A stretch of 64,000 nucleotides of DNA. It comes from Tubiluchus corallicola (lineage: Eukaryota > Priapulida > Priapulimorpha > Priapulimorphida > Tubiluchidae). The translations under genes and the position numbers were made by a program. The DNA lies in NCBI GenBank assembly GCA_030141605.1, contig JAQGDQ010000060.1, positions 673,001 through 737,000 on the forward strand, written 5' to 3'. The notes beneath the pieces were generated by a model that made no database searches, was not told the DNA's origin, and saw nothing but the letters and a program-made list of their open reading frames with translations. Shown piece after piece: positions 9,201-64,000 of this stretch; position 1 is the first letter of the stretch, and each line of letters opens with the position of its first letter.

Positions 9201-12200
9201 AAGTAACTGGAGTTTAAATTTGTCTATTCTTTACCGACTCATCTAACAATAAGTGTATTCCGGAGTCCCAACTCTGACTCCAAAACTCTTGGACTTGTAG
9301 TTTTAACAACTCTGTCTCCTTTTAACAGTAAATTTACTGTCGACTTCGACTCCACAGCCCTACTTGTTACTACAAATCCACATACAAAACTATAAACTCA
9401 GTTTCCTAATAAGCTACAGTTTTCATACTTGGTGGATGAATTCTGGATGGCATCAGGGATAGCAGACCTGCCAGAATTAAACCAGTTATATCGTTTTTTC
9501 ACGCTGGCCGCCAAGCTATTCGTCAAACTTTTCCTCTCATTCTGACAAATATCACATATGAAGGGTCCTAAAAGAAAATTCAAACCAAAATTAGACTAGT
9601 ACTCAATTTTCGCAATGGACGTGTGTCAACACAATGAAAATAGTTTTTTTCTCTCTATAACATCAAGTTACAAGTTAACATCAATTGGTCTTGTCACCTC
9701 AAACATCAGTGCATTAGGATCATTTTCGTTTCAGACTGACAGTAATTTAGGCATAACATTCACTTCTTTAAATTCTTATCAATTTCTTGTCATTAAACAT
9801 TCTAGCAAAAAAGCAAGGTTTTTAATCATTTCAAAAGAAAAAGTTCTACATTTGGGCAATCAATGAGTGATTTATATACACTTCAAACAATGTCAGTTGG
9901 GTGTTAGCTTCATGTGACAAGCTAGCCAAGTGGTGGTGACAATGCTGTCAAAAGTAACCATGTTGTTAGCCCTTAGTTTCAAGCAACAGACCTTACTACA
10001 GCAGAGCCACCTTAATGGCATTTGGCACTCAATGATTTTGACATGAGTGATTAACTATCGAAACAATTCCTTGCTCGTAGCAAAAAGCATTTAAAGCAAT
10101 AGAGTTGCAATGCTACATTTCCCACAACGCCGCCTGTGCAATTTTCTTAACAATGTAAATTTACACTGACATCTTAATTCTTGAAGTGTACAGCATTGTA
10201 GTTTGACACTGGACTTCAGACCAATGCCAATGTACAGCATTGTAATTTGACACTGGACTTTAGACCAATGCCAATGTACAGCATTGTAGTTTGACACTGG
10301 ACTTCAGACCAATGCCAATGTACAGCATTGTAGTATGACACTGGACTTCAGACCAATGCCAATGTACAGCATTGTAGTTTGACACTGGACTTCAGACCAA
10401 TGCCAATGTACAGCATTGTAGTTTGACACTGGACTTTAGACCAATGCCAATGTACAGCATTGTAATTTGACACTGGACTTCAGACCAATGCCAATGTACA
10501 GCATTGTAGTTTGACACTGGACTTCAGACCAATGCCAATGTACAGCATTGTAATTTGACATTGGACTTCAGACCAATGCCAATGTATAGCATTGTAGTTT
10601 GACACTGGACTTCAGACCAATGCCAATGTACAGCATTGTAGTTTGACACTGAACTTTAGACCAATGCCAATGTACAGCAATGTAATTTGACACTGAACTT
10701 CAGACCAATGCCAATGTACAGCATTGTGATTTGACACTGGACTTCAGACCAATGCCAATGTACAGCTTTCTACCTTTCGGGGAGTTAGTAAGCAGTGGTT
10801 TTATACAGTCGAGGTGGTATCCTCTATCACAGGCATCACAAAACAGAAGACTTGCATCCTGAAAAAATTACATTCAATTTATTTGTTAAATTGCTACGTT
10901 TATTAAAATGATGCAAAATTTAATCAACATACGTAAACCAAACTTTATTCATAATATAACTTATACATCCTGTAACGTACCTGCCACGCTAAATGATTCA
11001 AAATTTTATAAAATTGTTAGCAAAAATAACACAACTTTGAAAGAAGTCTTTAAACTTGTTCTCTTTTATCACACAAGATTACAAAAGGGCACGATATTGA
11101 CAAAATTACCTACAATAAATCTACTGAAATATTGAATAATTTTTTTAAAAAAGGGATTTTATTTTTAGTAGAAAACACAATCAAAAGGAATGACAGAGCA
11201 TACGGTAGTTTCATAAATTATTTTGTCGTATTCATGATTGTACGCACTAATAGTTGTTCATGTCTATCTAAGCTTTTTGTTCTAAACATCTAATTTGTTT
11301 TACTGTCACTTTCATTGTCTAATTTTAACCGAACTACTTATGTAATTGTACATGTCTGTATTGGAAAATAATGACGCTAATAAGAAACGTTGAATCTCAG
11401 AACACACCATCGTACTAAGCACAACGTAATATTCTGTTTAGTTTTATCACTCGATCAAAACACGATGAGTTGAGTAAAATTAAAATTGAAATTTTCCTGC
11501 CTGAGATTGTTATAATTTATGTCTGATCTAGACACAGAGACAACGAGTGTCCCGAATTACACAAAGAAACGGATTTACGACATACTAGAATGGCATCAAG
11601 TACCACACTGTGCTCCTCCTAAAAGGTTATTAGTTAATTAGACTCTCCTTCAAAATAAATCACAGAACTATGCCAGTGAGTAAATAATTGCAAGGCAAAA
11701 TCCCAAATCACAAAAGGTGTGATCAATCACCGCGCAGTTACAAATGATCAGCAGGCTAACACCTGCATAACAAGTTGGAAGTTTCCAAATAAAAAATTAT
11801 TAATGCGTCTACTAAATATGTAGTTGAATATTAATGTTTTATATCTGCTGTTTTTCTGAACATCAGGTGTGAATTTCAAGAAGGTAAATTAATAATAACT
11901 CCTGATTTTACATATTAAAACTTATCATTGGCCATTGCATTTCATTTGCACATGAAGCTTGCAATAATTCAACCTGTTACTGGAGCATTACATTTCTGAA
12001 TCACAGTGCAACACACTGTCCAAAGCTGTTACACACAGTGTCATGTTACCAACAGACTTTGATAATTAAAGGTCAACCGGCTTTGATAATTAAAGGTGAA
12101 CTTAGTCAAAGGAAGTGCCAGGTGGGCAGTGCTGAGAAAACTGCTAAAATTTATGGCTATTGATTACTGTGAAACAGCAACAGGCTGCATGGTACCTACT

Positions 12201-15200
12201 AGTGTCAAGGAGTGTGTAAGTTGATTTTCCTGTACCTGTCAAGGTTAAGACAAAAGTGTGAAGGTTGTCAGGCGACAAAGGAAAACAGAAAGTCAAAATG
12301 CAAATGATCTCCAAGCACCATGTACCTCCGTGTTTTACACCAGTAACAATCACGTGACTATCAAAAACAGACAATGGGAAAGAAAACACATGGCAGATTA
12401 TGACCGATATTAATTAGATTACGGCCATGGTCTAACTTTTCGGACAATGTTATTTACGAAACTCACAGCTGTTCCAGGTCGGCTACACTTGATGCAGGTT
12501 TTACACTCTATGCACTGCCATCGAGACTTCCGCACCTTTGCCGTCAAATCCGGCGAGAAGTTGAGGCACGATGGATGACCTGAAAATCAAAAAGATTCAT
12601 GAGCTATCTGACGACTAAAAAGAGCACAGATGACAATTTCTGTGAAATTTTCGAAGGTTTGCAATGTAATTTTTCATTTTGTTACGCGTTAAATGTATTA
12701 GTGGTTACGGTTGCTAGGTCCATTAAACCATTTCAAGGCTAATGAGAAAATACATTAGTGACTGCTTTAAAAACTACTTTTAGTTAGTTTCATTAGCAAC
12801 ACCCTCTGATCATTGCCTTGTCGATGGATGCTGTACACACTACTGGTCCTGCCACAAGTACCTGCATTAAATTGGCCTTGCTGAGTGTTGCATGCCAGTT
12901 TACAAAATCCCAAACTGTACAAGAAAGTTTTGCACTGGATCATTAAGTGTAGACATACGTATGTGTCTTGTACAGGCTTAATTCATCGAGCTTAAATTGA
13001 TTATGAATGTCTGAACAAGATTACAGATTTAAAGTTAAGTTAAGTTAAGTTTATTTATTTCCACTCTGCATCTCAATTATAATAAAAATACAGGTAATTT
13101 TCCACTGAAGAAAATATAAATGCAATATAATCCAAAAATTAGAAAAGAGATTCTTATGCAGCATATATATATTTACATTTTATATGTAAATATATACATG
13201 TGCAAATTACATTACAGAATAATTTTGATGCATACAGTTTGAGCATGTGCTAGCATGTACTTCAAGTGAACAGAAATCCTTCACATTCGGGGCAGTATTC
13301 CTACATCATTGCTCAGGCAAATTTGTCAACAGTCTTAGTAACATATACTAAGAAACACTCATTCTATAACAATTCTAAGAAACGCTCATTACAGTGAATG
13401 CCCGGGCCTGGGGGGTAAACAACATGTCGGAGCGGTACAGCTCGCCCAGAAGAAAGGCGCGCATTATATTTGAACAACACACACAACGCGTGTCAACGGA
13501 TAAACATTGCAACAGACGCGCATGCAAAACAAACGTATCTCATCGCCGCAGCAGCTGCATTAAACGAAAGAACAGTCTTCACTCACAAAAACAAGCTAGC
13601 CGCTTGCAACACCAGGGCGATGTCAATGCTCAATTTGCGCAGATTTGCAGTTTGCACACTTTGCTACGCACACGTCATCAACGCAATCAGTCGCTGATCT
13701 GGCTGAGAGGGTCTGCTGCTTGCTTGAGCACAACACACTAACTGTGTCCATTTTATCGATCCCCGAGTACCCACACAATTTCACAGATTTTCAACGCAGG
13801 AAAAACGTTTACAAACTGACTTATTGATCACCGCTCTGAGAAAGAGAGAGAGAGAGGTTTTCATTCCAAGAAGCCAGGCGACGAGTCAATGTCTTAACAC
13901 CGTAACTGTATTAGGGATTCAGAAATGTCTTTGATAAGCGCCACTTAGTGCAATGCTGCTGTACATGGCTTCAGTTGGCACTGATAAAGCGCTCGCTCTA
14001 ATCTATATAGTATCGGGATGAAGTGATTAGACTATAAAAATGTTCTCTTTCTCAGCAGTGGCGCTTAAATTGCCACTTAAAGTGTGAGGGGTTTTATTTA
14101 TACGCCTAGAGGCTTCAAGTCTACGAGCAGTCGGCTCATGCTCTTTCAAGTGCCATTCATTGAGCGCAAGTTATTTAAAACCTCGTTAGGTGAATGAAAC
14201 TGCGATGGGCTAGCGACCTCTTCTAGAATTTAGAATTGAATATAATTAACATTATCAGCACCACTTCCCAGATTAATCAGCTTAATCTAAACAAGCTTAA
14301 TAGCGCTTAACAGTTTAACATAGCAATTTTTACAACGTTGTAAAATAGTAAACAACTAAGCATACTAGAAGTTTGATCAGCTGAGAAGTGATTGCATAAG
14401 TTACATAAGATTGTCTCGTACCGAAAACTAAATTCAACACAATCAATCAGTTACTTAAACACTTTAAATTAGAAACCAATTCAGTCAATCACAATTAAGC
14501 TACTCAGATTTAATATTCATAGTCATGACATGATATAATATAACATTCATCAATTCACACAGCTGAATCGACAAGGTCATGTGACTAATCGTTACCAAGA
14601 CTACTCAGACAAAATCATATTTTAAAACGCAAGAACACAAAAATTGCTCAAGATACATCACTAGTGACAACATATTAACAGCAATGGCGGAAAATAGCGT
14701 GACTCAATCTACCAATTCTTGGCTAACGCATCCATGTAGAGAAGGGGGTAGCTTATAAACTATTGAACGATAATGGTAGTTTATTACCATTCCCAACTCT
14801 TATCTGTCTATAGGGATTGCTAGGAACAGATTAACTTCCCAAATACGACTAGCAGGAAGGGTGAACAGGGGCGTATTACAAGACGTAAATAGCAATTAAC
14901 CGTGTCATAACAAGCAGCAATGAGTGACAACAAATGATTCAAATGACTAATACTGTATATGACGCTATACGTGTCCGCTTGGCCATGAGAACGATAGCAA
15001 AACGACAAATAAATTTCAACTGAATAGAATTCATGGCTCGAGTAATTTTCTAGTATCAGGAGTTTTTGTCAAATTAGGCCACGTAACTGCGGCTTGCCTA
15101 ATCCACAGCAAAAACACTAAAGCGAGTTTTCTAATATGAAATGCCTTGCTGAATACAGTAGTAATTAGTAGATACAGTAGCTGCGTAGGCGCGCGCGCCA

Positions 15201-63694: not shown

Positions 63695-64000
63695 CCAGAT
63701 TGGGAGTTAGGTAAAACTGCTTGCACAGAACCCAGATTGGGAGTTAGGTAAAACTGCTTGCACAGAACCCAGATTGGGAGTTAGGTAAAACTGCTTGCAC
63801 AGAACCCAGATTGGGAGGTAGGTAAAGCTGTTTGCACAGAACCCAGATTGGGAGTTAGGTAAAACTGCTTGCACAGAACTCAGATTGGGAGTTAGGTAAA
63901 ACTGCTTGCACAGAACCCAGATTGGGAGTTAGGTAAAACTGCTTGCACAGAACCCAGATTGGGAGTTAGGTAAAACTGCTTGCACAGAACCCAGATTGGG
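63694..64000. repeat. 37-bp minisatellite in the MAD2L1 intron after exon 5, running off the window
   Basis: At least eight nearly identical 37-bp units (cccagattgggagttaggta and aaactgcttgcacagaa). The array begins inside MITE family A copy 3 and continues past base 64000. Confidence 0.95.

What the first reader, a model, noticed from the sequence alone, without database searches (positions are those of the whole stretch)
10187..64000. Pattern: four of six intronic minisatellites touch splice junctions
Arrays in KAT6 (8 bases from exon 4), LRMDA (4 bases from exon 4), RBM22 (0 bases from exon 9) and MAD2L1 (at the exon 4 acceptor) are joined to exon borders; the RBM22 intron 8 and MAD2L1 last-intron arrays are not. 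Chance placement in kilobase-scale introns makes this unlikely. A possible cause is tandem slippage or break repair seeded at exon-intron junctions, or a mechanism linked to transcription and splicing.
Basis: inference. Interest (0 to 1): 0.75.

Follow-up and report, generated by a model that had tools for sequence, protein, structure and literature searches.

The report
Tandem-copied exon-intron borders in introns
In this animal genome some repeat arrays inside genes are made of many copies of the very spot where an exon ends and an intron begins, so the true splice signal is followed by a row of decoys; this could show how such repeats, and sometimes new introns, start.

Summary
Confirmed, and sharper than first described. 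They are in register with the border. RBM22 repeats GCCAG|GTGAGAT; KAT6 and LRMDA begin their first unit at intron +1. Elsewhere arrays repeat both sides of a donor: myosin, phosducin-like, Smoothened-type, IRP/aconitase, dynein, HSP60, with 12-40 nt of exon tail in later copies, some with mismatches.

Genome-wide, tandem triples of two donor words exceed their reversed control 2.9- and 3.5-fold; the single donor word (0.97) and an acceptor word (0.96) show no excess. These counts are clumpy and partly transposon-borne. In a 211-kb independent sample 2 of 9 arrays sit at donors, 0.34-0.49 expected (P 0.05-0.09): suggestive only.

Best reading: short tandem duplications at donors are tolerated because the exon-flush copy stays intact, and the extra copies then expand in the intron. 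A donor-specific mutational bias is possible but unproven. One array (C41) looks like an intron born by tandem duplication.

The parts
10187..10766 (-). 44-bp x 13 array in the KAT6 intron after the PHD exon; first unit in register with the donor GTAGAAAG (intron +1 at 10773); 0 of 13 downstream copies keep GT
10774..10858 (-). KAT6 PHD-finger exon (..CCGAAAG at its end)
29293..30412 (+).
47680..47842 (-). 34-bp x 4.8 array containing the RBM22 donor GCCAG|GTGAGAT; 4 of 4 downstream copies keep the full donor
48162..48907 (.). 114-bp (3 x about 38) array inside the preceding RBM22 intron, not touching an exon
61460..61878 (+). 61-bp array ending at the MAD2L1 acceptor (AG 61881-61882); 4 of 6 upstream copies in register carry a T-tract plus AG
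63693..64000 (+). 37-bp array in the last MAD2L1 intron, 221 bases after the donor; continues to about 64426; no exon recognised at either edge

Best explanation
These are donor-anchored minisatellites. A short tandem duplication (about 15-60 bp) starts at or spans a 5' splice site. The copy flush with the exon keeps the reading frame and the authentic donor, so the extra exon tail plus donor falls into the intron and is tolerated; slippage or unequal exchange then expands it to about 5-50 copies. The first copy is frozen by selection on exon and donor while the others homogenise among themselves, so in some arrays the detected edge drifts to just past the donor (+4 in LRMDA, +8 in KAT6) and donor GTs in the copies can be lost. 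Spanning an acceptor should be less tolerated, because the upstream AG would be met first from the branch point. Shown: units in register with or containing the border, at different genes, with units that share nothing beyond the donor word. Inferred: slippage as the process, selection as the filter, which copy is spliced, and the freezing of the first copy.
For: Matches between the real border and a later copy, exon-tail side: RBM22 5 nt, myosin C2144 27 nt with 3 mismatches, phosducin-like C5 26 with 5, secreted-type exon C24 4, Smoothened-type C32 40 with 6, IRP C99 26 with 1, dynein C173 12 exact, ORF C34 12 exact, HSP60 C29 17 with 4 (identities). Unit against unit, 105 pairs: best score 25, shuffled maximum 24 in 1050, the top pairs being mostly ones that contain the donor word. 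Donor words in tandem triples: GGTAAGT 2215 vs 765 reversed, AGGTGAG 1455 vs 417; single GGTAAGT 43,565 vs 44,739; acceptor TTTNCAG triples 4434 vs 4637. GT in downstream copies of arrays not picked by a donor word: KAT6 0 of 13, LRMDA 0 of 19, kinesin 1 of 12, myosin 3 of 9.
Against: Donor contact in the independent sample is only 2 of 9 (P 0.047-0.086), 1 of 9 by a strict edge rule. In one search, six of 15 arrays show 0-2 nt of exon-tail match (KAT6, LRMDA, kinesin, C88, C41, C195), so for them a border-spanning origin is inferred. Word counts are clumpy: 46 of 100 listed GGTAAGT places belong to one 42-bp family in inverted pairs, and 13 and 27 of 100 listed AGGTGAG places to a dispersed 26-bp family and to AGGTG-type simple repeats. 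Of 22 donor-word arrays fetched, 7 sit at clear donors, 2 more are likely (C88, C195), 13 show none. GT is fully kept in RBM22 (4 of 4) and in the C41 units seen (9 of 9), so decoy loss is not general; copies in one array are not independent. Tolerance alone does not explain why donors would exceed intron interiors.
Confidence: 0.55

Rival explanations
1. Pure chance with short introns: minisatellites arise everywhere in introns and some founder units happen to overlap a border; no donor preference exists.
For: Units of 20-60 bp against introns of about 0.5-2.5 kb make roughly 3-15% donor contact per array expected (hand arithmetic); the independent sample gives P 0.047-0.086; 7 of 9 sampled arrays do not touch.
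Against: Tandem excess of two donor words with none for the acceptor word or the single donor word; 3 donor contacts in the window with about 0.4-0.5 expected.
Confidence: 0.25
2. A donor-directed mutational process, such as polymerase pausing or R-loops at 5' splice sites causing template switching, makes duplications more often at donors than elsewhere in introns.
For: Donor but not acceptor excess; recurrence at different genes with unlike units.
Against: No expression, replication or polymorphism data; the asymmetry is also expected from selection, since acceptor-spanning duplications would be spliced at the wrong AG.
Confidence: 0.2
3. Intron birth: the array is the intron, created by tandem duplication of a coding stretch holding AGGT, with the first copy giving the donor and the last the acceptor.
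For: C41, a leucine-rich-repeat-like gene: the unit carries TAATCCATTCATTTGTAA, exactly nucleotides 2-19 of the downstream exon, 6 exact copies in the two fetched ends, and the donor side starts GTAAGATATTCATT.
Against: The other arrays copy the donor side; several visibly fill only part of a longer intron (window arrays, myosin, kinesin). The Smoothened intron position matches the human one as I recall it, so that intron looks old.
Confidence: 0.15
4. Transposable elements that carry minisatellites inserted near exons, or introner-like elements.
For: Two dispersed array families exist here: a 42-bp family in inverted pairs (C17, C38; a like sequence in L048) and a 26-bp family (C29, C48, C100, C227).
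Against: Units of the 15 junction arrays share nothing beyond the donor word, and 9 contain 4 nt or more of the gene's own exon tail.
Confidence: 0.05

Closest known systems
Intron gain by tandem genomic duplication of AGGT-bearing exon segments (review PMC3443670, passages read; Drosophila cases PMC2891723, passages read; potato RdRp PMC4974935, listing only)
   Same: A short tandem duplication that includes AG|GT creates extra splice sites; the first copy serves as donor. The C41 intron fits it well.
   Different: Here most cases multiply the donor border, to about 5-50 copies, and no new intron is shown except as a candidate in C41.
Human introns in tandem arrays of direct repeats (Zhuo et al. 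2007, recalled, not read)
   Same: Splice-site-bearing tandem arrays inside introns.
   Different: There, as recalled, both intron boundaries match; here most units match the donor side of one intron, with unit sequences private to each gene.
Intronic minisatellites/VNTRs, e.g. the earthworm metallothionein intron arrays (PMC12783039, passages read)
   Same: Large minisatellite arrays within introns.
   Different: Monomers of about 180 bp, and no exon-border content reported in the passages read.

Membership tests
Minisatellite | Head-to-tail copies of a unit of about 10-100 bp | tested here: met
   TRF: the junction arrays measured have periods of 21-61 bp and 4.8-48.5 copies; the C99, C173, C34, C29 and C195 arrays were seen only at their upstream edge
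Intron gain by tandem genomic duplication | Both intron ends are copies of one coding segment | tested here: inconclusive
   Met for C41 (18-nt exact match of unit to downstream exon); for the others the acceptor end was not tested
Intron gain by tandem genomic duplication | Intron is new at that position | not testable with these tools
   No related animal genome is held; Smoothened position recalled as shared with human
Introner-like elements | One sequence family spread as introns at many loci | tested here: not met
   Units of the 15 junction arrays compared pairwise: best score 25 against shuffled maximum 24
Transposon-borne minisatellite | Same unit at several loci | tested here: not met
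   Not met among the 15 junction arrays; seen for the 42-bp and 26-bp families, which were set apart
Splice-donor decoys with function | Downstream donor copies bind U1 or alter splicing | not testable with these tools
   No RNA data; GT mostly lost in four arrays, kept in RBM22 and C41

The most novel reading that the evidence does not exclude
5' splice sites of this genome are hot spots where the exon-intron border itself is amplified into minisatellites, perhaps at about 1% of introns (2 of 152 sampled exons), by a donor-specific mutational process tied to transcription or splicing; the arrays are rows of decoy donors, often later disabled, and some become new introns.
Probability: 0.25. 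Interest if true: 0.8.

Novelty: new variant of a known kind. Interest (0 to 1): 0.58.

Why it matters
If donor borders are recurrent birthplaces of minisatellites, the genome offers many natural experiments on which of several near-identical donors a spliceosome chooses, on selection against decoy sites, and on how tandem duplication grows or creates introns. It would also warn gene annotators and variant callers that exon ends can be repeated many times downstream.

Tried and rejected
Rejected: the arrays as coding repeats. Read in frame from the exon, by eye, the first extra copies meet a stop in myosin, phosducin-like, dynein and RBM22, though one Smoothened-type copy reads through without a stop before the next does (sequences); the others were not read. 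Rejected: one mobile family behind the junction arrays. Not decisive: donor-word arrays at exons (7 clear of 22 fetched) against control-word arrays (1 of 9, C41); too small to decide. The acceptor word gave no excess. GT loss in copies is suggestive only; a per-column test was not run. A structure search with the phosducin-like exon found nothing, and C34 gave only a weak hit to an unrelated-looking chain (8vd6, 0.00044). Paper searches (7 of the 10 allowed) showed no report of donor-spanning minisatellites in their listings; most subscription journals are missing from the library.

What was left out of counts: of 13 GGTAAGT arrays listed I fetched 7, leaving 5 of the 42-bp family and one simple repeat; of 21 AGGTGAG arrays listed I fetched 15, leaving 6 simple repeats; both lists stop at the first 100 places. 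Of 16 control contigs listed I fetched 9; one search had shown wrong edges for some of these, so redid them (C41 stands as shown): both ends were seen for 6 of 9 (C41, C181, C349, C389, C530, C548), one for 3 (C13, C462, C539). Whether an edge is an exon was judged by eye from open frames, so exons without a long frame can be missed in either set (C92 and C161:59185 had short open frames that I could not judge and count as none).
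Full report
The window. It is C1821:673001-737000 of a 343.5-Mb genome in 2344 contigs. The four contacts are real: 7 bases (KAT6), 3 bases (LRMDA), 5 bases inside the exon (RBM22) and 4 bases (MAD2L1 acceptor); the RBM22 intron 8 and the last MAD2L1 arrays lie about 165-220 bp from the nearest exon seen. Gene names are backed (KAT6A PHD, 5.9e-8; MYST domain; RBM22, 2.3e-33; HORMA, 5.9e-5, 23.1 bits against a cut-off of 24); LRMDA was not tested.

Register. Listing the copies shows that the arrays are in register with the splice site. In RBM22 the unit is GTGAGATGATTAGTTTGAAATTCATCTTTGCCAG, and the exon itself ends GCCAG. In KAT6 the first unit runs from intron +1 for exactly one period (44), GTAGAAAGCTG.. 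where later copies mostly read CTACAATGCTG.. In LRMDA the first unit also begins at +1 (55 bases against a period of 56). In MAD2L1 a T-tract with AG recurs in 4 of 6 upstream copies, in register with the real acceptor.

Sample. To test the pattern away from the window I took exons found by Pfam models in the genome: Myosin_head (93 matches) and Kinesin (117 matches). From these I fetched 25 myosin stretches and 15 kinesin stretches chosen as compact multi-exon clusters, 211,037 bases holding 152 exon hits. I counted 9 minisatellite-like arrays (3 or more copies), one split over L004/L005 counted once and the L048 array taken as one although TRF splits it into periods 20, 21 and 57; two simple repeats (L010 AACC, L036 TCA/CCA) were set aside. 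Two of 9 sit at donors: myosin C2144 (36-bp unit containing at least the last 22 exon nucleotides and GTAAGTTATGATAG) and kinesin C828 (21-bp unit, its first GTAAGTCC copy 19 bases after the donor GTAAGTTTGC). The other seven do not: a 72-bp array about 110 bp from its exon, a 72-bp x 3 array 77 bp away, two 25-bp arrays in opposite orientation, and 25-bp, 21-bp and L048 arrays far from hits. Expected donor contacts are 0.34 (10-base tolerance) or 0.49 (30-base); P for two or more is 0.047 or 0.086. Pooled with the window, hand arithmetic gives about 1.0 expected and 5 seen at 30-base tolerance (P about 0.004), but the window suggested the pattern, so this is not an independent test.

Genome-wide words. 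The search tool reports each pattern with its reversed, uncomplemented form as control. Three GGTAAGT at minisatellite spacing: 2215 against 765. Three AGGTGAG: 1455 against 417. Single GGTAAGT: 43,565 against 44,739; the single AGGTGAG was not counted. Three TTTNCAG: 4434 against 4637. So the donor words, not the acceptor word, are over-represented in tandem. The counts are matches, not arrays, and clump: 46 of 100 listed GGTAAGT places come from one 42-bp family lying in inverted pairs (C17, C38), and of 100 listed AGGTGAG places 13 come from a dispersed 26-bp family and 27 from AGGTG-like simple repeats. The excess in independent arrays is therefore smaller than the raw ratios, and the control word has clumps of its own (for example an inverted pair on C49).

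What those arrays are. I fetched 7 of 13 listed GGTAAGT arrays and the upstream edges of 15 of 21 listed AGGTGAG arrays. Clear donors with the border in register: phosducin-like C5 (33 bp x 48.5; name from recall, one search found no structure match), a secreted-type first exon C24 (judged by its open frame), a Smoothened-type Fz exon C32 (Pfam Fz 6.8e-14; the name Smoothened is recalled), IRP/aconitase C99 (5.2e-27), dynein heavy chain C173 (2.9e-8), an open frame in C34, HSP60 C29 (1.4e-20): 7 of 22. Likely: C88, and C195 (Kunitz-like, 0.0055, below the cut-off; donor 40 bases upstream of a decayed array). The remaining 13 of 22 show no exon at the edge by eye, four of them belonging to the 26-bp family. 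Of 9 control-word (TGAATGG) arrays with fetched flanks, 1 touches an exon: C41. At 3 of those 9 only one edge was seen.

C41. Here an array lies between an exon ending ..GAGATGACAG and one starting GTAATCCATTCATTTGTAACTG; its two ends, not its middle, were fetched. Eighteen bases of the downstream exon's head recur exactly in the units, and the donor begins GTAAGATATTCATT, itself like the exon head. Joined, the exons read ..EMTGNPFICNCSLAW.., a leucine-rich-repeat C-terminal sequence by recall (Pfam gave no match). This is what intron gain by tandem duplication at AG|GT should look like (PMC3443670 and PMC2891723, passages read).

Units. The 15 junction-array units compared pairwise share no more than the donor word: the best of 105 scores is 25, against a maximum of 24 in 1050 shuffles. 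So the arrays most likely arose separately.

Decoys. In arrays that were not picked by a donor word, downstream copies keep GT in 0 of 13 (KAT6), 0 of 19 (LRMDA), 1 of 12 (kinesin), 3 of 9 (myosin), 4 of 4 (RBM22) and 9 of 9 units seen (C41). Loss in four of six fits selection against decoy donors, but copies in an array share descent and two arrays keep all of theirs.

Mechanism. A duplication across a donor leaves the exon-flush copy intact, so the coding sequence is unharmed as long as that copy is used; the surplus lies in the intron and can expand. A duplication across an acceptor puts a competing AG nearer the branch point and lengthens the exon, so it should be removed more often. This would explain donors over acceptors. 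It does not by itself explain donors over intron interiors; if the excess holds in an annotated survey, a donor-specific mutational process would be needed. Freezing of the first copy while the rest homogenise would explain why the array edges of KAT6 and LRMDA lie at +8 and +4.

Novelty. Tandem duplication as a source of introns is known; arrays of donor borders downstream of ordinary exons, in many genes of one genome, I did not find in the listings of seven paper searches. I file it as a new variant of a known kind.

Noticed in passing
G000 C41:36500-38750 (L052, L053): An intron with a 36-bp array whose units copy 18 nt of the downstream exon head: a candidate intron born by tandem duplication.
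   Followed up: partly
G000 C17:50586-56310 and C38:57265-65269; L048:1486-1654: A 42-bp GGTAAGTCAAATGTAGACA.. minisatellite in inverted pairs about 5.5-7 kb apart, foldback-like; L048 holds a like sequence.
   Followed up: no
G000 C29:36634, C48:60779, C100:42790, C227:22387: A dispersed 26-bp minisatellite AGGTGAGTCAGTGGTGCACACTGGGA with, in two of the four, similar-looking flanks; probably carried by a transposon.
   Followed up: partly
window 30338-30694: Directly after the LRMDA array, at an acceptor-like TTACAG, an open frame of about 90 codons with a hydrophobic stretch; possible alternative or nested exon.
   Followed up: no
window 28867-28936: Degenerate TTAGGG telomere-like stretch about 360 bp upstream of the LRMDA array.
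   Followed up: no
L022:4691-4913 and 5343-5603: Two 25-bp arrays of the same unit in opposite orientation between two myosin exons.
   Followed up: no
G000 C917:20400-23919 and 90660-94210: The same myosin exons with mostly equal scores on opposite strands of one contig: a large inverted duplication or an assembly fold.
   Followed up: no
L003:1250 onwards: Long run of N after the last MAD2L1 array, so the last MAD2L1 exon was not seen.
   Followed up: no
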